Shown piece after piece: positions 3,742 to 12,713 of a stretch of 64,000 bases of DNA. Below the pieces are notes generated by a model, which saw only the letters and a list, made by a program, of their open reading frames with translations, ran no database searches and was not told the origin of the DNA. The stretch comes from an uncultured Flavobacteriaceae bacterium (GTDB lineage: Bacteria > Bacteroidota > Bacteroidia > Flavobacteriales > Flavobacteriaceae): the NCBI GenBank assembly GCA_905181615.1, contig CAJIYH010000002.1:806001-870000 (forward strand), in the 5' to 3' direction. Position numbers and translations under genes: made by a program. How positions within the stretch are numbered: the stretch's first letter is position 1; the number at the start of each line of letters is the position of its first letter.

Positions 3742-3774
3742 TTTGAGAAATTCGAAAAAATGACACTAAGTTTG
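3742..3774 (+). promoter_or_regulatory. Promoter of the arginine operon
   Basis: TTTG at 3742-3745, a 21-base spacer, then TAAGTTTG at 3767-3774. This fits the Bacteroidota housekeeping consensus (TTTG about 20 bases upstream of TAnnTTTG). Transcription would start near 3780, about 30 bases upstream of the leader peptide start codon. Confidence 0.55.
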
Positions 3775-3811
3775 GTACTTTAGCAATAATGTGGCAACTT
3801 TGATAAATCTT

Positions 3812-3895
3812 ATGAAAGAAAACAATACATATATGAACCCTGCTTCTGTTCCAACGAACAGCAGATGTCCTCGTGTATTCTGTCGCCGCCCCTAG
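3812..3895 (+). CDS. Putative arginine operon leader peptide (27 aa)
   Basis: A short frame starts with ATG just after the predicted transcription start and encodes 27 residues. The second half is Arg- and Cys-rich (SRCPRVFCRRP, then TAG), with Arg at codons 18, 21, 25 and 26. It lies between a good promoter and the first gene of the arginine operon. Regulatory amino acid codons near the end of a short leader are the hallmark of ribosome-mediated attenuation (as in his, trp and ilv leaders), so an arginine-sensing leader is the natural reading. A second in-frame ATG at 3833 could also serve as start. The stop codon lies in the loop of a small hairpin. Translation and function are inferred, not shown. 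Confidence 0.55.
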   Translation: MKENNTYMNPASVPTNSRCPRVFCRRP

Positions 3896-3900
3896 GGGTG
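3887..3900 (+). promoter_or_regulatory. Hairpin over the leader stop codon, possible attenuator element
   Basis: CGCCC and GGGTG can form a 5-bp stem (one G-U pair) with the loop CTAG, which holds the leader peptide stop codon. A second sequence, AGGTGCG near 3920, could compete for part of the left arm. From 3950 to 3970 the DNA is T-rich (TATATTTTTATCTTTTT), but no strong hairpin precedes it. The region to 3981 has no other obvious content. Confidence 0.35.
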
Positions 3901-3981
3901 ATATTCTTTACGGAATTTAGGTGCGTCCGGTTTCAGTTTCAACTTCTTATATTTTTATCTTTTTAACTTAAAATTTCAATA

Positions 3982-4548
3982 ATGGAAATCGTTATTGCCA
4001 GCTCAAACTACATACATTATTCAAAGACAATTAGTCTCTGTATAGATGAATCTGCCAAAGATCGCGGGACAGGAATTGCCAGAAGAACTCCCGAATATAT
4101 ATCCAAAAAAATGCGAAACGGCAATTCTGTAATCGCTCTTGAAAACGACAAATTTGCAGGCTTTTGTTATATAGAGGTTTGGGGACATGGAAATTATGTT
4201 GCCCATTCGGGACTCATCGTTTCCCCAGAGTTTAGGGGGCAAGGTCTTGCAAAGAAAATAAAGAAAACAGTTTTTGAATTGTCTTTAGAAAAATACCCTG
4301 GTGCAAAAATATTTGGAATTACAACAGGTCAGGCTGTCATGAAAATAAATTATGAATTGGGATATAAGCCGGTTCATTTTTCTGAACTTACAGATGATCC
4401 AGAGTTCTGGAAAGGTTGTCAGACCTGTAAAAACTATGATGTTCTAACACGAACAGAACGCAGTATGTGCTTATGCACAGGAATGCTTCATGATCCAAAT
4501 CAAGCTAAAAAAACTCAAACAAACACGACTAATAAAGAAACGAAATGA
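3982..4548 (+). CDS. GNAT-family acyltransferase, probable N-acyl-glutamate synthase of the arginine pathway
   Basis: A 188-residue GNAT protein. The acyl-CoA binding region is visible as GLIVSPEFRGQGLAKKI (about residues 77-93), followed by the helix-strand pair ending INYELGYKPV. The C-terminus carries four closely spaced Cys (CQTCKNYD and MCLCTG), a possible metal or structural site. It is the first gene of the arginine operon and overlaps argG by four bases. No other glutamate N-acyltransferase and no argJ is present in the operon, so this protein probably does the first step, acetylating or succinylating glutamate. The function rests on family plus context. Confidence 0.7.
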   Translation: MEIVIASSNYIHYSKTISLCIDESAKDRGTGIARRTPEYISKKMRNGNSVIALENDKFAGFCYIEVWGHGNYVAHSGLIVSPEFRGQGLAKKIKKTVFELSLEKYPGAKIFGITTGQAVMKINYELGYKPVHFSELTDDPEFWKGCQTCKNYDVLTRTERSMCLCTGMLHDPNQAKKTQTNTTNKETK

Positions 4549-5735
4549 AAAAATTAGTACTCGCATACAGTGGAGGTCTAGACACTTCTTATTGTCTTAA
4601 AACACTTTCTAAAGAAGGGTATGAAGTTCATGCTGTTAGTGTAAATACAGGAGGATTTTCTCCAGACAAAATTATCGAACAAGAATCGAAAGCCATGCAA
4701 ATGGGGGCAAGTTCTTATACTTCTATCGATGCTCTAGATTCGTTTTATAAAAAAATAGTTAAATACTTAGTTTTTGGAAACGTCCTGAAAAATAACAGTT
4801 ATCCGCTTTCGGTAAGCGCAGAACGGATTGTTCAAGCAGTAGAAATTATTTCGTATGCAAAAAGAATTGATGCTCAATTCATCGCACACGGAAGTACAGG
4901 AGCTGGAAATGATCAGGTACGATTTGATTTAATATTCCAAGTTTTAGCTCCCGCAATAAAAATTATAACTCCAATAAGAGACCAACAACTATCTAGAGAA
5001 GCTGAAATAGAATATCTAAAATCTGAAGGAATTGAAATGTCTTGGGAAAAAGCACAATATTCTATTAACCAAGGGCTTTGGGGAACTAGTGTTGGTGGTA
5101 GTGAAACCCTAACATCGGACAAAGCGCTTCCGAGCACTGCATACCCAAGTCAGTTAACCGAATCAGAACCTAAGCAAATTACTCTTGATTTTGAACACGG
5201 AGAAATATCTGGAATCAATGGAGTAAAAGGCAATCCAGTAGCGCTGATTCAGCAGGTGCAAGAAGTTGCCAAAGGATATGCCATTGGTCGCGACATTCAT
5301 GTTGGAGACACCATTATTGGAATTAAAGGCCGAGTTGGTTTTGAAGCTGCGGCACCCTTAATTATAATCAAAGCACACCACTTATTAGAGAAACATACCC
5401 TCTCAAAATGGCAACAATTTCAGAAAGAACAATTGGGAAGTTTCTACGGCATGCTTTTACACGAAGGAAATTATCTGGATGCGGTTATGCGCGATATTGA
5501 ATCGTTCCTAGAAAGCAGCCAGAAAACTGTAAATGGTTCAGTAATAATTACCCTCCACCCATACCGATTTGAATTAGAAGGCATACAATCGCCTAATGAT
5601 TTAATGAATGCCTCTTTTGGAAGTTATGGAGAAATGAATAAGGGTTGGACCGCAGAAGATGCAAAAGGTTTTATTAAAATAATAGCAAATGCACATAGCA
5701 TTTACGGGAGTGTAAATAATAAAGATTCGAAATGA
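4545..5735 (+). CDS. argG: Argininosuccinate synthase
   Basis: Joins citrulline and aspartate with ATP to form argininosuccinate, the penultimate step to arginine. The N-terminal PP-loop reads AYSGGLDTSYCL (residues 8-19), and the HGSTGAGNDQVRFD segment that contacts citrulline and aspartate is intact near residues 120-133. Length (396 aa) is typical. Start and stop both overlap the neighbouring genes by four bases (ATGA), indicating translational coupling with the GNAT gene upstream and argC downstream. Confidence 0.96.
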   Translation: MKKLVLAYSGGLDTSYCLKTLSKEGYEVHAVSVNTGGFSPDKIIEQESKAMQMGASSYTSIDALDSFYKKIVKYLVFGNVLKNNSYPLSVSAERIVQAVEIISYAKRIDAQFIAHGSTGAGNDQVRFDLIFQVLAPAIKIITPIRDQQLSREAEIEYLKSEGIEMSWEKAQYSINQGLWGTSVGGSETLTSDKALPSTAYPSQLTESEPKQITLDFEHGEISGINGVKGNPVALIQQVQEVAKGYAIGRDIHVGDTIIGIKGRVGFEAAAPLIIIKAHHLLEKHTLSKWQQFQKEQLGSFYGMLLHEGNYLDAVMRDIESFLESSQKTVNGSVIITLHPYRFELEGIQSPNDLMNASFGSYGEMNKGWTAEDAKGFIKIIANAHSIYGSVNNKDSK

Positions 5736-6706
5736 AAACAGCAGGAATTATAGGAGGTTCAGGATATACAGGCGGAGAACTACTCAGATTAGTTCTTAAC
5801 CATCCGGGTTTAGATTTGAACTTTGTGTACAGCACAACAAGACCTGGATTTGCAATAAGTGATACACATCCCGATTTATTGGGATCAACCGAAATGAACT
5901 TTACGGATCAAGTCAACACAAAAGTCGATGTCGTTTTTCTTTGCTTAGGTCACGGAAATTCTTCAAAGTTTTTGGAACAAAATATTTTTTCTGCCAATAC
6001 GCTAATCATCGATTTGAGTAATGATTTTAGGTTATCTGCCAACAGTGGATTTATGGGACGTAAATTTGTTTATGGATTACCAGAACTAAACAAAGAAGCA
6101 ATTGAACAATCAACTGCTGTTGCAAACCCAGGCTGTTTTGCTACTGCAATTCAATTGGCTTTACTTCCATTAGCAGAAGCTAAAAAGTTAAACAACAGCA
6201 TCCACGTCAATGCAACTACAGGAAGTACAGGAGCTGGAGTTGGTCTTTCGGCGACAGCGCATTTCAGTTGGAGAAACAATAATATGTCGTGGTACAAACC
6301 TTTTACACATCAGCATTTAGGAGAGATAAATGAAACTCTTGACTCCCTTCAAGAAGGGCAAACTAATATGCATTTTCTTCCACAGCGAGGTGATTTTACC
6401 CGCGGTATTTTTGCAACCGCATATACAGCATTCGATGGAAGCTTAGAAGAAGCAGTTGATATGTATTCTAACTATTATAAAAACGATCCTTTTACCCATA
6501 TTTCTAAACAAGAAATTGCTTTGAAACAAGTAATAAATTCAAACAACTGTTTCCTTCACCTATTCCTTCATGAAGGAACTTTATTAATTACTTCTGTAAT
6601 CGATAATTTAATTAAAGGTGCTTCTGGTCAAGCCATTCAAAATATGAATTTGATTTTTGGATGGGAAGAACGACTTGGATTAGACATCAAATCATCTATA
6701 TTTTAA
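5732..6706 (+). CDS. argC: N-acetyl-/N-succinyl-gamma-glutamyl-phosphate reductase
   Basis: An NADPH-dependent reductase that converts the N-acyl-glutamyl phosphate made by ArgB into the semialdehyde. The N-terminal Rossmann motif GGSGYTGGELLRL is at residues 8-20. The catalytic Cys lies in VANPGCFATA, and the ATTGSTGAG loop follows. At 324 residues it is of normal length. It overlaps argG by four bases and is followed after 15 bases by proC. Confidence 0.95.
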   Translation: MKTAGIIGGSGYTGGELLRLVLNHPGLDLNFVYSTTRPGFAISDTHPDLLGSTEMNFTDQVNTKVDVVFLCLGHGNSSKFLEQNIFSANTLIIDLSNDFRLSANSGFMGRKFVYGLPELNKEAIEQSTAVANPGCFATAIQLALLPLAEAKKLNNSIHVNATTGSTGAGVGLSATAHFSWRNNNMSWYKPFTHQHLGEINETLDSLQEGQTNMHFLPQRGDFTRGIFATAYTAFDGSLEEAVDMYSNYYKNDPFTHISKQEIALKQVINSNNCFLHLFLHEGTLLITSVIDNLIKGASGQAIQNMNLIFGWEERLGLDIKSSIF

Positions 6707-6721
6707 CCCCAAATAAACAAT

Positions 6722-7516
6722 ATGAAAATAGCAATAATAGGAACTGGAAACCTGGGCTTAAGTATCGCAAAAGGATTGATAATTAACAATACCATTACAA
6801 CCCTATACCTTACCAAAAGAGACCTCAACGGACTTTCGGAATATAAAGACCACAAAAACGTATTCTTAACCTCAGATAATGCGGAAGCAATCCGCAACTC
6901 AGACATTATCATTTTTGCAGTTCAACCGGGTCAATTTGAAAATATTTTGACTTCGATTAAAAACGAATTAACCGACAAGCATGTTCTAATATCTACCATT
7001 ACAGGATTTAAGATTGAACGCATTGAAGCCCTTATTGGATATAAATTTCCAATCATCAGAAGCATGCCCAATACCGCAATTTCTGTTGGTAAATCAATGA
7101 CATGTATCTGCTCTAATGTGGTGGGTAAAAAGAGAATCGATATCGCATCTGCTATATTTAATGGCTTGGGAACTTCAATAACCATTGGAGAAGAACACAT
7201 GCAAGCAGCGACAGTAATTTGCGCCAGTGGAATTGCTTTCTGGATGCGTCTAATTAGAGCCATGACTCAAGGTGGAGTTCAACTTGGGTTTGAAGCAAAA
7301 GAAGCCATGGATATGTCGGTATATACAGCATTGGGTGCAGCCTCACTTTTAATAGAAAACAAATCACATCCAGAGGCAGAAATAGACAAAGTAACAACCC
7401 CGCGCGGATGTACTATTACAGGTTTGAACGAAATGGAACATCAAGGTCTTAGCTCTTCTTTAATTCAAGGTCTAGCGGCATCATTTCATAAAATTAATGA
7501 AATTTCAACGCAATAA
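6722..7516 (+). CDS. proC: Pyrroline-5-carboxylate reductase (ProC-like)
   Basis: This 264-residue enzyme reduces pyrroline-5-carboxylate to proline using NAD(P)H. The N-terminus IAIIGTGNLGLSIAKGL is a dinucleotide-binding motif, RSMPNTAISVGKSMT matches the conserved ProC segment, and the C-terminal dimerisation helix carries the VTTPRGCTITGLNEME motif (the usual TSPGGTT region). Its place inside the arginine operon, as in other Bacteroidota, links proline and arginine synthesis through the shared glutamate-semialdehyde/ornithine node. Confidence 0.9.
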   Translation: MKIAIIGTGNLGLSIAKGLIINNTITTLYLTKRDLNGLSEYKDHKNVFLTSDNAEAIRNSDIIIFAVQPGQFENILTSIKNELTDKHVLISTITGFKIERIEALIGYKFPIIRSMPNTAISVGKSMTCICSNVVGKKRIDIASAIFNGLGTSITIGEEHMQAATVICASGIAFWMRLIRAMTQGGVQLGFEAKEAMDMSVYTALGAASLLIENKSHPEAEIDKVTTPRGCTITGLNEMEHQGLSSSLIQGLAASFHKINEISTQ

Positions 7517-7519
7517 ACT

Positions 7520-8659
7520 ATGAAACTATTTGATGTTTATCCACTTTACGATGTAACGCCTGTAAAGGCAAAAGACGTTTTTGTTTATGATGAAAATGGA
7601 ACTGAATATCTAGACCTTTATGGAGGACATGCTGTTATTTCTATTGGACACGGACATCCACATTACATTAAAAAACTAAAAGATCAATTGGATAATATAG
7701 GGTTCTATTCAAATGCAATTCAGAATCCATTGCAACAAGAATTAGCAGATGCTATTGGACACCAATCGTGCTGTCATGACTACCAATTATTCTTGTGTAG
7801 TTCGGGTGCAGAAGCAATTGAAAATGCACTAAAATTAGCCTCTTTTCATACCCAAAAAAAAAGAATCATAGCGTTTAGAAATGCGTTTCATGGCAGAACC
7901 AGTGCAGCAGTTGCAGCAACTGATAACCCCAATATAAATGCGCCTTTAAACAAGCAACAAAAAGTTACTTTTTTAGAATTCAACGATTCAGAAGGTCTAG
8001 AAAATGAATTGCAAAAAGGAGATGTTTGTGCAGTAATTTTTGAAGCCATTCAAGGTGTAGGCGGACTGGATCAACCCTCGGAAGCGTTTGTTTATGATAT
8101 GGATCGCTTATGTAAAAAATATAACTCTTGCTTAATTGCCGACGAAGTTCAATCCGGTTTTGGAAGAACAGGCACTTTCTTTGCTTATCAAAAGTATGCA
8201 ATACAACCACATATTGTAACCATGGCAAAAGGAATGGGAAATGGATTTCCGATTGGCGGAATCTTGGTTCATCCAAGTATAGAAGCTAAATATGGCATGC
8301 TAGGAACTACCTTTGGCGGAAATCATTTGGCTTGTGCAGCTTCGGTTGCCGTGTTATATGTTTTAGAAAAAGAAAGACTTCAAGAAAAATCAAAAGAACT
8401 TGAAGCCTATTTCATGAATCAGGCTAAAGATATTTTGGAAGTAAAGCAGATAAAAGGACGTGGTTTGATGTTAGGACTTGAATTTAATTTTGAAGTTGGA
8501 GCCTTGCGTAAAACTCTGATTTATGATAAAAAGATATTCACCGGAGGCAGTAGCAATAAAAATCTGTTGAGAATTTTACCTCCTTTAACAGTTCAGAAAA
8601 AACACATCGATTACTTCTTTAAAAGCCTAAAAGAAGCCCTTACAGAATATAAAAATTAA
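7520..8659 (+). CDS. argD: Acetyl-/succinyl-ornithine aminotransferase
   Basis: A PLP-dependent class III aminotransferase of 379 residues that makes N-acyl-ornithine from the ArgC product with glutamate as donor. Visible landmarks are SSGAEAIENALKLA (phosphate binding), FHGRT, the DEVQSGFGRTG segment with the Asp that contacts the pyridine nitrogen, and the Schiff-base lysine in MAKGMGNGFPIGG. It starts three bases after proC and ends three bases before argF'. Confidence 0.93.
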   Translation: MKLFDVYPLYDVTPVKAKDVFVYDENGTEYLDLYGGHAVISIGHGHPHYIKKLKDQLDNIGFYSNAIQNPLQQELADAIGHQSCCHDYQLFLCSSGAEAIENALKLASFHTQKKRIIAFRNAFHGRTSAAVAATDNPNINAPLNKQQKVTFLEFNDSEGLENELQKGDVCAVIFEAIQGVGGLDQPSEAFVYDMDRLCKKYNSCLIADEVQSGFGRTGTFFAYQKYAIQPHIVTMAKGMGNGFPIGGILVHPSIEAKYGMLGTTFGGNHLACAASVAVLYVLEKERLQEKSKELEAYFMNQAKDILEVKQIKGRGLMLGLEFNFEVGALRKTLIYDKKIFTGGSSNKNLLRILPPLTVQKKHIDYFFKSLKEALTEYKN

Positions 8660-8662
8660 CAT

Positions 8663-9610
8663 ATGAAAAATTTCATAACCCTAAACGATCTTCCCAGCTT
8701 TGACGCAGCTTTAGTCTTGGCTAAATCCCTGAAAAAAGATCCCTATGCTTTTGAAGAGCACGCAAAGAGAAAAACATTGGGACTGATTTTTTTCAATCCC
8801 AGTTTAAGAACTCGTTTGAGTACTCAGAAAGCAGCACAAAATTTAGGGTTCAATACCTTGGTTATGAATTTTTCAAATGAGGCTTGGGCACTAGAATTCG
8901 AAGACGGTACCGAAATGCGTGGTATACGATCGGAACACATTCGTGAAGCAGCAGCAGTTGTTTCTCAGTATTGTGATGTAGTTGCTATCCGAGCTTTTGC
9001 ATCCCTTACAAACAAAGAACAAGACGAAGCCGAAATTGTATTGAATAGCTTTGCTAAATACGCTAGTATTCCGGTAATCAATATGGAAAGTGCAACTGGG
9101 CATCCACTCCAAGCCTTGGCAGATGCTGTTACCCTTTCGGAACACCCTACGCCTCACAAACCAAAAATTGTATTGACTTGGGCACCGCACCCCAAGGCAC
9201 TTCCGCATGCTGTTGGAAATTCGTTTGTAAAAATGATGGAGCACCAAGATTCAGACTTTGTTATTGCAAACCCCGAGGGTTACGATTTGGATCCTAGAAT
9301 TACAAAAAACATTCCCATTTCACATAACCAAGAAAAGGCTCTGAAAAATGCTGATTTTGTATATTCTAAAAATTGGTGTTCCTACACGAATTATGGTTCT
9401 ATATTAAGAACGGATGATAAATGGATGTTGACTTCAGAAAAGATGAACTTGACTAAAAATGCAAAATTCATGCATTGTCTTCCAGTTCGAAGAAATATTG
9501 TAGTTTCAGATGGAGTTTTGGATAACCCAAATTCACTGGTTATTGAACAAGCAAACAACAGAACATTCGCAGCACAGGCTGTTCTAAAAATAATCTTGGA
9601 TCATGTCTAA
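8663..9610 (+). CDS. argF': N-acetyl-/N-succinyl-ornithine carbamoyltransferase
   Basis: Transfers carbamoyl to an N-acylated ornithine instead of free ornithine. The carbamoyl phosphate motif is SLRTR (in FFNPSLRTRLST), which characterises the acyl-ornithine carbamoyltransferases, where ordinary OTCases have STRTR. HCLPVRRN near the C-terminus is the ornithine-side motif. In the studied Bacteroides fragilis enzyme the substrate is succinylornithine, in Xanthomonas it is acetylornithine; the sequence read here does not settle which applies. The gene overlaps argB by eight bases. Length (315 aa) is typical. Confidence 0.92.
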   Translation: MKNFITLNDLPSFDAALVLAKSLKKDPYAFEEHAKRKTLGLIFFNPSLRTRLSTQKAAQNLGFNTLVMNFSNEAWALEFEDGTEMRGIRSEHIREAAAVVSQYCDVVAIRAFASLTNKEQDEAEIVLNSFAKYASIPVINMESATGHPLQALADAVTLSEHPTPHKPKIVLTWAPHPKALPHAVGNSFVKMMEHQDSDFVIANPEGYDLDPRITKNIPISHNQEKALKNADFVYSKNWCSYTNYGSILRTDDKWMLTSEKMNLTKNAKFMHCLPVRRNIVVSDGVLDNPNSLVIEQANNRTFAAQAVLKIILDHV

Positions 9611-10376
9611 AATAAGTATCGTGAAAATTGGCGGAAATGTAATTGAAAACTCAAAGGTATTGCAGTCTTTCCTTTCAGGATTCGCAAAACTAGAGGGACC
9701 CAAAGTCTTAGTTCATGGAGGGGGTAAAAAAGCATCTCAATGGGCAGATCGCTTGGGTATTCCAGCTCAAATGATCGAAGGACGCAGAATTACAGACTCC
9801 GAAACTCTAGAGCTTATAACCGGGATATATGGAGGTCAAGTAAACAAAAATATAGTAGCTTTATTACAAGCTCTTAATTGTAACGCCATTGGAATATCGG
9901 GAGCAGATGGAAACGCAATTAAAGCAGTAAAACGTGCTACTAAACCGATTAATTATGGGTTTGTTGGCGATGTAACTGAAGTCAATTCTAGCTTTTTTAA
10001 ACATCTTTTAGAACAAGGTTTAAGCCCTGTTTGTTGCGCTTTAACTCACGACGGATCAGGACAAATACTAAATACCAATGCCGATACCATTGCTTCTCAA
10101 ATTGCAATTGCACTAAGCGCTTCTTTCGAAGTTAACTTATATTACTGTTTCGAAAAACCGGGTGTCTTACGCGCTGTAGAAGATGAAAACTCGCTGATAG
10201 AAAACATAGATACAGCTGTCTACAAAGAACTGATTGAAACTAAAATAATCCACGAAGGGATGCTACCAAAAATGAAAAATGCTTTTGATGCACTACAACA
10301 AGGAGTTTCGAAAGTAGCCATCGGAAAGCCTGAAATGATTGGGAGTAACACAAAACACACATCAATAACCTTATAA
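9603..10376 (+). CDS. argB: N-acetyl-/N-succinyl-glutamate kinase
   Basis: An amino-acid kinase family enzyme (257 aa) that phosphorylates N-acyl-glutamate, the second pathway step. Visible features are the N-terminal KIGGNVI strand, the glycine loop LVHGGGKKAS, and the NTNADTIASQIA motif that contacts the substrate and nucleotide. The protein lacks the extra N-terminal helix known from arginine-inhibited hexameric kinases, so feedback inhibition at this enzyme is less likely; this fits control at the RNA level by the leader upstream. Confidence 0.92.
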   Translation: MSKISIVKIGGNVIENSKVLQSFLSGFAKLEGPKVLVHGGGKKASQWADRLGIPAQMIEGRRITDSETLELITGIYGGQVNKNIVALLQALNCNAIGISGADGNAIKAVKRATKPINYGFVGDVTEVNSSFFKHLLEQGLSPVCCALTHDGSGQILNTNADTIASQIAIALSASFEVNLYYCFEKPGVLRAVEDENSLIENIDTAVYKELIETKIIHEGMLPKMKNAFDALQQGVSKVAIGKPEMIGSNTKHTSITL

Positions 10377-10377
10377 C

Positions 10378-11436
10378 ATGAACGAAATACTAACCCAAGA
10401 AGCCTTAGCACTATTAAAAGATTTAATTTCAATTCAATCATTTTCTAGCGAAGAACAAGGAACAGCAAAGCGAATCGAAAGCTGGTTTACCGATCACGAA
10501 ATTCCGTTTATGCGCGAAAACAATAATGTATATGCATTTAATAGTTCTTTTGAAAAAGGCAAACCAACGCTGCTTTTAAACTCACACCACGATACCGTAA
10601 AACCAAACAGCGCCTATACCAAAGAACCTTATTTTCCGCATATCGAGGATGGAAAACTCTTTGGACTGGGAAGTAACGACGCAGGAGGGGCATTGGTGTC
10701 TCTTTTAGCTCTTTTTACTCACTATTACGAACATCCAAACCCTAAGTATAACCTTATAATTGCAGCGACCGCAGAAGAAGAAAGCTCAGGCCCATTAGGA
10801 CTTAATTCCCTTTTAAAAACCCTACCGGATATTGATTTAGCTATTGTAGGGGAACCTACGCTGATGCAATTGGCAGTGGCAGAAAAAGGATTGGTTGTTT
10901 TTGATGGCGTAGTTTCTGGAACTGCAAGCCATGCAGCACATCCAAACGATGATAACCCAATCATGAAACTACCTCAAGTTTTAGAATGGTTCAACAACTT
11001 TAAGTTCGAAAAAAAATCGGAAGCACTGGGCCCTGTAAAAATGACAGTAACCCAAGTTAGTGCAGGAAAGCAACACAACGTAGTGCCAGCAGAAGCTCAC
11101 TTGGTTATCGATGTTCGTGTTAATGATTGCTATTCCAATATGGATGTAGTTGCCCTACTTCAAAAAGAAGCGCCTTGTACGCTAACCCCTCGTTCGACCA
11201 ACTTAAACTCTTCTTCTATTCCAATCGATCACGAATTGGTTCAAGCAGGAATGGGCTTGGGCAGAACTCCCTATGGTTCTCCTACCCTTTCGGATCAAGC
11301 AAAATTATCCTGTCCTTCGCTAAAACTTGGTCCCGGAGATTCGACCCGTTCGCACACGGCAAACGAATACATTCATGTTTCCGAAATCGAAGAAGGCATC
11401 AAAATTTACATCAACCTCTTAAACGAAATCTTATGA
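10378..11436 (+). CDS. argE: Acetyl-/succinyl-citrulline (ornithine) deacylase, M20 family
   Basis: A 352-residue M20 metallopeptidase. Metal and catalytic residues are visible: SHHDTVKP (metal His and catalytic Asp), GSNDAGG (bridging Asp), AEEESS (general base Glu and metal Glu) and GEPT. Because ArgF' acts on acyl-ornithine in this pathway, the substrate is probably N-acyl-citrulline, giving citrulline for ArgG. It starts one base after argB and its stop overlaps the argH start by four bases. Confidence 0.9.
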   Translation: MNEILTQEALALLKDLISIQSFSSEEQGTAKRIESWFTDHEIPFMRENNNVYAFNSSFEKGKPTLLLNSHHDTVKPNSAYTKEPYFPHIEDGKLFGLGSNDAGGALVSLLALFTHYYEHPNPKYNLIIAATAEEESSGPLGLNSLLKTLPDIDLAIVGEPTLMQLAVAEKGLVVFDGVVSGTASHAAHPNDDNPIMKLPQVLEWFNNFKFEKKSEALGPVKMTVTQVSAGKQHNVVPAEAHLVIDVRVNDCYSNMDVVALLQKEAPCTLTPRSTNLNSSSIPIDHELVQAGMGLGRTPYGSPTLSDQAKLSCPSLKLGPGDSTRSHTANEYIHVSEIEEGIKIYINLLNEIL

Positions 11437-12713
11437 AACTTTGGCAAAAAGGAAAAGCAGCGCATTATAAAGTAGATCAATTTACCGTAGGTAGCGATCG
11501 CGAGTACGATTTATTATTAGCAGCGTACGACTGCGAAGCTTCTAGTGCACACGCACAAATGCTCGCTAAAATTCAAATCCTAACCCAAGAAGAAGCTGAT
11601 TTGCTTACCCTTGCGTTGAATCAGCTGAAAGAAAAAGCACAAAACGGAAGTTTTACAATCGAAGATGAATTCGAAGATATGCACTCCAAAATCGAACAGG
11701 TACTAACAGAACAACTGGGCGATTTAGGAAAAAAAATACACACCGCTCGTTCCCGAAACGATCAAGTTTTGGTCGCCATGCACTTGTACATAAAAGACGA
11801 ATTGTCTCAAATCAAAAAAACGGTATTTCAACTCTTTGACTTGCTGATGAATTTAGCCGATCAATACAAAAAAGAATTGATTCCTGGATATACGCATTTA
11901 CAAGTAGCCATGCCCTCTTCGTTTGGGATGTGGTTTTCTGCCTACGCAGAAAGTTTAATCGACGATGTGCATTTTATAAATACTGCCCACACCCTAGCAG
12001 ATCAAAACCCATTGGGAAGCGCAGCTGGTTATGGAAGTTCGTTTCCGATTGATCGAGAATTAACCACCGAGTTGCTCAACTTCAGTACCTTAAAGTACAA
12101 TTCAGTAGCTGCACAGATGAGCCGCGGGAAAGTAGAAAAAACAACCGCTATTGCTCTCAGCATGGTCGGCAGTACCTTGTCTAAATTTGCTATGGATGTT
12201 TGTTTATATATGGGACAGGATTTTAATTTTGTTTCCTTCCCCGACGATCTGACCACCGGATCGAGCATTATGCCGCACAAGAAAAACCCAGATATTTTTG
12301 AATTGATCCGAGGAAAATGCAACGCATTGCAATCCTTACCTACCCAACTAACACTACTAACCACCAATCTTCCTTCGGGTTACCACAGAGAATTGCAACT
12401 TGCAAAGGCGCCTATAATCGATGGAATACAAGAACTAAAAGCTTGTTTGGATATGTTGCTGTTTAGCCTACCTAAAATAGAAGTTACCAAAAACACAACC
12501 GACCAATCCAAATACGATTACCTCTTTAGTGTCGATACGCTAAACGCTAAGGTACAAGACGGAATGCCGTTTCGTGACGCCTACCGCGAATTGGGAACCG
12601 CTATTGAAGAAGGGAATTACACAGCAACCCGTGCGGTTGAACATACCCATCTAGGGAGTATTGGCAACCTCGGTTTACAAAAAATTAAAGATAAAATGAA
12701 CAAGCTCCGATAG
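11433..12713 (+). CDS. argH: Argininosuccinate lyase
   Basis: Cleaves argininosuccinate to arginine and fumarate; a 426-residue fumarase/aspartase superfamily enzyme. Conserved segments: TARSRNDQV, PGYTHLQVAMPSSFG, NPLGSAAGYGSS, and the signature loop GSSIMPHKKNPD with the catalytic Ser. The start chosen is the ATG at 11433, which overlaps the argE stop as ATGA and gives the usual MKLWQKG N-terminus. The open frame runs further upstream through argE, but that part is not protein-like. A hairpin follows at the end of the operon. Confidence 0.95.
   Translation: MKLWQKGKAAHYKVDQFTVGSDREYDLLLAAYDCEASSAHAQMLAKIQILTQEEADLLTLALNQLKEKAQNGSFTIEDEFEDMHSKIEQVLTEQLGDLGKKIHTARSRNDQVLVAMHLYIKDELSQIKKTVFQLFDLLMNLADQYKKELIPGYTHLQVAMPSSFGMWFSAYAESLIDDVHFINTAHTLADQNPLGSAAGYGSSFPIDRELTTELLNFSTLKYNSVAAQMSRGKVEKTTAIALSMVGSTLSKFAMDVCLYMGQDFNFVSFPDDLTTGSSIMPHKKNPDIFELIRGKCNALQSLPTQLTLLTTNLPSGYHRELQLAKAPIIDGIQELKACLDMLLFSLPKIEVTKNTTDQSKYDYLFSVDTLNAKVQDGMPFRDAYRELGTAIEEGNYTATRAVEHTHLGSIGNLGLQKIKDKMNKLR

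What the first reader, a model, noticed from the sequence alone, without database searches (positions are those of the whole stretch)
3742..3981. Candidate arginine-sensing leader peptide and attenuator in front of the arginine operon
A consensus-type promoter is followed by a 27-codon frame whose last ten codons include four Arg codons (AGA, CGT, CGC, CGC), ending CRRP-stop. It sits directly before a nine-gene arginine operon. The stop codon lies in the loop of a 5-bp hairpin, whose left arm has an alternative partner (AGGTGCG near 3920). The three-Cys, Pro-rich C-terminal motif is unlike the known his/trp leaders and could be a nascent-chain arrest peptide. Seen: the frame, its codons, promoter boxes and hairpin. 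Inferred: regulation by arginine supply. The 3900-3981 part lacks a clear terminator, so the mechanism may be translational or Rho-linked, not classic attenuation.
Basis: partly seen in the sequence, partly recalled or inferred. Interest (0 to 1): 0.75.

Follow-up and report, generated by a model that had tools for sequence, protein, structure and literature searches.

The report
Arginine-codon leader switch before arginine genes
In front of the arginine-making genes of this marine bacterium, and of about 200 related species checked, sits a tiny arginine-rich reading frame followed by a conserved RNA hairpin, which probably lets the cell switch the genes on when ribosomes run short of arginine; the family has lost the usual arginine repressor and this RNA element is in no public RNA catalogue.

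Summary
A 27-codon frame (3812-3895) ending in an Arg-rich run and RRP-stop lies before a nine-gene arginine operon (3982-12713), and it is conserved. Of 110 loci fetched by the first operon gene, 91 carry the same module; a covariance model finds it in 213 of 299 Flavobacteriaceae genomes, once per genome, and not convincingly outside the family. CGT/CGC triplets occur in frame 271 times against 52 and 43 in the other phases. Leader Arg codons are 94% CGC/CGT and 1.5% AGA; in the adjacent gene AGA is 39%.

The proposed "alternative partner" AGGTGCG is P2's bulge and loop. There are two Cys, not three, and they are not conserved, so a nascent-chain arrest motif is not supported. Unlike his leaders of related genomes (intrinsic terminator 24/24), arg leaders lack one (6/99). 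ArgR is absent from all 60 relatives.

Best reading: ribosomes stalling on CGY codons sense low tRNA-Arg charging; the output (Rho, mRNA stability or translation) is inferred and resembles Salmonella orf34-speF. New variant of a known kind.

The parts
3771..3802 (+). Likely promoter of Bacteroidetes type: TTTG (3771-3774), 20-nt spacer, CAACTTTG (3795-3802; consensus TAnnTTTG)
   Evidence: Sequence; TAnnTTTG within 60 nt upstream of the leader ATG in 31/81 relatives, mostly 15 nt before it, against 5/81 control stretches. Transcription start not measured.
3812..3895 (+). Leader ORF, 27 codons, MKENNTYMNPASVPTNSRCPRVFCRRP-stop
   Evidence: CGY in frame 271 vs 52/43 in the other phases over 98 loci; mean 3.9 Arg in the last 14 codons.
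3846..3861 (+). P0 hairpin inside the leader ORF (CTGTTC-CAAC-GAACAG), upstream of the Arg run
   Evidence: Hairpin at the same place with changing sequence in relatives; strong hairpin in 40/98 loci vs 7.5 expected from codon shuffles, maximum 14; predicted in the window fold.
3863..3892 (+). Arg-codon region RCPRVFCRRP (AGA, CGT, CGC, CGC): inferred arginine sensor
   Evidence: Leader Arg codons over 99 loci: CGC 233, CGT 141, AGA 6 of 396; GNAT gene Arg codons: AGA 269 of 696.
3887..3900 (+). P1, stop-codon hairpin CGCCC-CTAG-GGGTG
   Evidence: 91.7% of cells paired in 96 relatives, variants such as GGGCG and CGCAC/GTGCG keep pairing.
3912..3934 (+). P2 hairpin: GGAATT / TA bulge / GG-TGCGT-CC / GGTTTC; loop consensus GG-UGNGU-CC
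   Evidence: At least 5 bp in 90/99 loci vs mean 44, maximum 55 when arms are exchanged between loci; 40 distinct arm pairs; loop GG and CC invariant in 99/99.
3935..3981 (+). Unstructured, G-poor tail up to the first start codon
   Evidence: Over 99 loci: mean length 48 nt, G 5.2%, C 18.1%, mean folding energy -0.4 kcal/mol; 28 control stretches in the window: G 9.5%, C 10.9%.
3982..12713 (+). Regulated operon of nine genes: GNAT, argG, argC, proC, argD, acetylornithine carbamoyltransferase, argB, argE-like, argH

Best explanation
A cis-acting arginine leader. RNA polymerase transcribes a short frame whose end is a run of CGT/CGC codons read in this genome by the only ACG-anticodon tRNA-Arg found. 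When arginine is short, the ribosome stalls in the CGY run, upstream of or over the left arm of the stop-codon hairpin P1. When arginine is plentiful, it runs on to the RRP-stop, opens P1 and leaves. The two ribosome positions act on the RNA between the leader stop and the operon (P1, P2 and the naked tail) so that the operon is expressed under arginine shortage. There is no intrinsic terminator, so the output is most likely premature Rho-dependent termination, or mRNA decay, of the untranslated stretch after leader termination, with P2 as the downstream-of-stop hairpin that sets the choice. Shown by comparison: leader frame, Arg codons and CGY choice, P0/P1/P2, absence of a terminator, absence of ArgR. 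Inferred: that arginine is the signal, the sign of the response, the role of P2, and Rho or decay as the output. The 0.6 is for the whole statement; for an arginine-sensing translated leader alone I would put about 0.88.
For: Frame conserved with changing sequence; CGY in frame 271 vs 52/43; leader Arg codons 94% CGY vs AGA-rich neighbouring gene; one tRNA-Arg(ACG) among the tRNAs examined; element only before GNAT-argG, one per genome. In 18 family genomes searched both ways, 11 with the operon gene have a strong element and 7 without it have none. P2 covariation, P1, P0. Intrinsic terminator in 24/24 his leaders but 6/99 arg leaders. ArgR absent in 60/60 relatives with controls ringing. Rho present. 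Precedent: Salmonella orf34-speF has Arg codons, a stop-codon hairpin, a downstream-of-stop hairpin, Rho and RNase G (PMC6386406).
Against: No transcript, ribosome or reporter data. P1's right arm has no conserved alternative partner, so the structural switch is undefined. The distance from leader stop to P2 varies (stop from -30 to -10 relative to the P2 loop), which fits poorly with one simple steric rule. A leader with no obvious ATG in about 16 relatives needs another start codon. P2's near-invariant loop is not explained by this model. The G-poor, C-rich tail is only weak support for Rho, and its control came from one genome.
Confidence: 0.6

Rival explanations
1. Translated arginine leader, but the output is mRNA stability or translation of the first gene rather than transcription termination: a stalled ribosome or P2 protects the 5' end or keeps the first start codon open.
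For: No terminator in 93 of 99 leaders; P2 is followed by an unstructured stretch up to the start codon; orf34-speF uses RNase G and access to the ribosome-binding site.
Against: P2 lies about 48 nt upstream of the start codon and no conserved pairing hides the start; nothing here tests decay.
Confidence: 0.25
2. Two independent devices in one leader: the Arg leader peptide, and P2 as a binding site for an unidentified trans-acting factor (protein, RNA or ligand) recognising the bulged A, GG/CC and the UGNGU loop.
For: GG and CC invariant and UGNGU nearly so in 99 loci while the stem changes freely; found only before the arg operon.
Against: Some relatives keep a plain hairpin at this place without the loop (L105, L108, L118, L119), so the loop is not needed everywhere; no factor identified.
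Confidence: 0.2
3. Classical attenuation, with P1 as a weak intrinsic terminator followed by a T-rich linker.
For: P1 plus T-rich linker passes a relaxed terminator scan in the window and in 44 of 99 loci.
Against: Only 6/99 pass the strict scan that 24/24 his leaders pass. The hairpin lies on the coding end and stop codon, so a ribosome waiting just upstream during starvation could leave it free, the wrong sign; no antiterminator partner is conserved.
Confidence: 0.08
4. Nascent-chain arrest peptide that senses arginine in the ribosome tunnel, like the fungal arginine attenuator peptide or TnaC.
For: Conserved RRP before the stop; Pro-stop is slow in known arrest peptides (general knowledge).
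Against: Cys and most residues are not conserved; Arg positions and peptide ends vary (RRP*, RRPLGV*, RRLVRV*, RRTFVRA*), and the RRP end is partly forced by P1's CGCCC arm. Arg codon choice is selected, which a peptide-level sensor would not need.
Confidence: 0.05

Closest known systems
Salmonella orf34-speF leader (PMC6386406)
   Same: Short leader ORF whose Arg codons sense arginine; hairpin at the stop codon and a downstream-of-stop hairpin; Rho involved; low arginine favours expression.
   Different: Controls ornithine decarboxylase, leader over 500 nt, two consecutive Arg codons early in the ORF; no UGNGU hairpin; expression also responds to ornithine. No sequence relation was tested.
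Classical amino-acid attenuators (e.g. the his leaders in related genomes, L179-L202)
   Same: Short leader peptide rich in the end-product amino acid just before the biosynthetic operon.
   Different: The his leaders have a strong intrinsic terminator in 24/24; arg leaders in 6/99, with P2 at that place instead.
Leader-peptide attenuation noted in Flavobacterium psychrophilum (PMC9723704)
   Same: Same bacterial family; leaders before amino-acid operons.
   Different: The main text names structured elements before hisG, pheA and others but no arginine leader; its supplements could not be read here.
GUCCY-hairpin (Weinberg 2010, PMC2864571)
   Same: By its name a small hairpin with GUCC, listed for Bacteroidetes and Proteobacteria.
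   Different: P2 has GUCC followed mostly by A or G, not a pyrimidine; the published consensus could not be read and the table gives no Rfam number, so identity was not tested.
Fungal arginine attenuator peptide
   Same: uORF peptide regulating an arginine gene.
   Different: Eukaryotic peptide arrest by free arginine (general knowledge); no shared features tested or seen.

Membership tests
Amino-acid leader-peptide control (general kind) | Short translated ORF rich in codons for the pathway's product just upstream of its operon | tested here: met
   Mean 3.9 Arg in the last 14 codons, in-frame CGY 271 vs 52/43, adjacent arg operon. Translation inferred from conservation, not measured.
Classical (trp/his-type) transcription attenuator | Intrinsic terminator between leader and first gene | tested here: not met
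   6/99 arg leaders vs 24/24 his leaders by the same strict scan; P1 passes only a relaxed scan.
Classical (trp/his-type) transcription attenuator | Conserved mutually exclusive antiterminator pairing | tested here: not met
   No consistent alternative partner for P1's right arm over 96 loci.
Rho-dependent leader attenuator (tnaC/speFL/mgtL-like) | Rho-dependent 3' ends after the leader | not testable with these tools
   Rho is present in the genome; tail is C-rich, G-poor and unstructured, which is only suggestive.
orf34/speF-type leader | Arg codons, stop-codon hairpin and downstream-of-stop hairpin | tested here: met
   Anatomical likeness only; function and homology not shown.
Any Rfam family | Score above the family's gathering threshold | tested here: not met
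   No hit in the leader at gathering score, and only chance-level hits at E up to 10.
Nascent-chain arrest peptide | Conserved residues at fixed distance from the arrest site | tested here: not met
   Cys not kept, Arg positions and peptide ends variable.
ArgR/ARG-box control | ArgR in the genome | tested here: not met
   0 of 60 relatives, own genome included, with positive controls.

The most novel reading that the evidence does not exclude
P2 is a new family-wide RNA signal (bulged A, GG/CC, UGNGU loop) read by an unidentified factor or by RNA polymerase, so that the arg operon of Flavobacteriaceae is controlled by a leader peptide plus a terminator-free hairpin switch of a kind not described before, which took over from the lost repressor ArgR.
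Probability: 0.25. Interest if true: 0.8.

Novelty: new variant of a known kind. Interest (0 to 1): 0.6.

Why it matters
How Bacteroidetes that lack ArgR regulate arginine synthesis was not described in the literature I could search. This element gives a concrete, genus-spanning candidate with a testable sensor (the CGY codons) and a conserved RNA hairpin not in Rfam. It also offers a natural comparison: in this bacterial family the his operon uses a textbook attenuator while the arg operon does not.

Tried and rejected
Rfam at gathering score and at E up to 10: nothing relevant. Exact peptide pattern CPRVFCRRP in 60 relatives: own genome only, because the peptide drifts; the gene-anchored search was needed. 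P2 loop pattern elsewhere in 40 genomes: the arg leaders plus a few chance matches. Secondary covariance-model hits in 12 genomes: chance matches, mostly in or against coding sequence. Class-wide search: strong hits only in Flavobacteriaceae; the four weak others look like chance. GGUG of P2 pairing with the Arg codons CGCC: no covariation with the variable loop base on inspection. P2 loop as a Shine-Dalgarno-like site (AGGUGA): variants GGUAAGCCC, GGCGUGCCC and GGAUAUUCC and the invariant extra G speak against it. GUCC of the P2 loop pairing with P1's right arm: fails in loci with GTGCG arms. Single-sequence folding of the window alone is not significant, so the case rests on comparison. The relationship to the published GUCCY-hairpin could not be resolved.

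Full report
Observation. The reading frame 3812-3895, its four Arg codons and the stop-codon hairpin at 3887-3900 are present as described. They precede nine arginine-pathway genes on the same strand: GNAT acetyltransferase, argG, argC, proC, argD, acetylornithine carbamoyltransferase, argB, an ArgE/DapE-type deacylase and argH. Three details were wrong: there are two Cys, not three; no sigma-70 consensus promoter lies on the + strand, a Bacteroidetes-type promoter being more likely; and the AGGTGCG segment is part of another hairpin.

Conservation. The first operon gene (GNAT) was used to fetch upstream regions without reference to the leader: 30 loci from 60 relatives and 80 named Flavobacteriaceae loci. 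91 of the 110 loci carry GGTGNGTC, in nearly all cases as GGTGNGTCC, within 320 nt upstream of the gene, usually 55-80 nt before its start, with an Arg-rich frame ending in front of it. Several of the remaining loci carry loop variants, or a leader with a plain hairpin at that place. A covariance model finds the element in 213 of 299 Flavobacteriaceae genomes at E up to 0.1, including the window at 2.5e-16; the weakest of those 213 are likely chance. In 18 family genomes searched both for the gene and for the element, all 11 with the gene have a strong element match and none of the 7 without the gene does. Extra hits are chance matches, and the class-wide search gives no convincing case outside the family.

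Translation. In the 36 nt upstream of the last in-frame CGY codon, CGT/CGC triplets are in frame 271 times and out of frame 52 and 43 times over 98 loci. Among 64 closely related leader pairs, differences fall most often at third codon positions (448 vs 333 and 284). This is strong evidence for a translated frame under selection for Arg codons. Arg codons in the leaders are CGC 233, CGT 141 and AGA 6 of 396; in the first 180 codons of the adjacent gene AGA leads with 269 of 696. The window's genome has tRNA-Arg genes with anticodons ACG, TCG and TCT among those examined, one ACG; that CGY is read by the ACG (inosine) tRNA is general knowledge. Part of the CGC excess at the very end is forced by P1.

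RNA structure. P1 (CGCCC...GGGTG) lies on the RP codons and the stop; 91.7% of cells pair, with variants such as GGGCG and CGCAC/GTGCG (visible). P2 has at least 5 bp in 90 of 99 loci against a mean of 44 and a maximum of 55 when 3' arms are swapped between loci; there are 40 distinct arm pairs, and pair types vary at most stem positions. The inner GG and CC are invariant in 99 of 99, and the loop is UGNGU with few exceptions. The 99 were chosen by that loop or a near variant, so its invariance is partly by selection; 91 of 110 gene-anchored loci is the fair figure. The count on the model alignment agrees but is out of register for loci with a one-base bulge. P0 is a further hairpin inside the leader frame. 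The window sequence alone does not fold significantly better than shuffles.

What it is not. By one strict scan, 24 of 24 his leaders in related genomes have an intrinsic terminator, and 6 of 99 arg leaders do. P1 passes only a relaxed scan, in 44 of 99. No conserved competing partner for P1's right arm was found. The leader is therefore not a classical two-state attenuator on this evidence. ArgR is absent from all 60 relatives, so the common repressor is not available. Cys residues and peptide ends are not conserved, which speaks against an arrest peptide.

Mechanism. Shown by comparison: a translated Arg-codon leader, three hairpins, no terminator, and an unstructured G-poor tail of about 48 nt before the first start codon. 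Inferred: low charging of tRNA-Arg stalls the ribosome in the CGY run and raises operon expression; with plentiful arginine the ribosome finishes and leaves, and the untranslated RNA is terminated by Rho or degraded, P2 acting as the downstream-of-stop hairpin. The closest experimental precedent is Salmonella orf34-speF, where Arg codons, a stop-codon hairpin and a downstream-of-stop hairpin set termination and RNase G decay (PMC6386406). That is a likeness in working, not shown kinship. Rho is present, but Rho dependence is untested.

Known or new. Leader-peptide control of amino-acid operons is known, and leaders are mentioned for flavobacteria in general (PMC9723704). No description of an arginine leader in this family was found in the open library, and the element has no Rfam family. 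The library lacks most subscription papers, and supplements were closed, so absence there is weak evidence. I rate it a new variant of a known kind.

Noticed in passing
L020, L022, L023, L025 upstream of the arg operon: A second Arg-rich short frame (e.g. MILIKNIIRPSSPAIALRRRRSAH in L025) lies about 230-310 nt upstream of the first gene, ahead of the P1/P2 module: apparently two arginine leaders in tandem.
   Followed up: partly
L019, L021, L022, L026, L075, L087, L102, L107: The Arg-rich frame before P1/P2 is open but has no obvious ATG start; the start codon or the mode of translation is unclear.
   Followed up: partly
L182 (own genome, upstream of hisG): Textbook his attenuator: peptide MKRNLLHNNHHFTVSNEL followed by a strong intrinsic terminator.
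   Followed up: yes
L105, L108, L118, L119, L029, L030, L031: Arg-rich leader followed by a plain hairpin at P2's place without the UGNGU loop, including three loci from other families of the order.
   Followed up: partly
L160 (G111): Degenerate P2: TTGAATTAGATGAGTTGAGTTCAG keeps UGAGU, but one inner G-C pair has become A-T and the other is lost.
   Followed up: partly
window 8663-9607: The carbamoyltransferase passes the cut-off for N-acetylornithine carbamoyltransferase but not for ornithine carbamoyltransferase, so arginine synthesis likely runs through an acylated citrulline.
   Followed up: no
window 6722-7516: proC (pyrroline-5-carboxylate reductase) lies inside the arginine operon.
   Followed up: no
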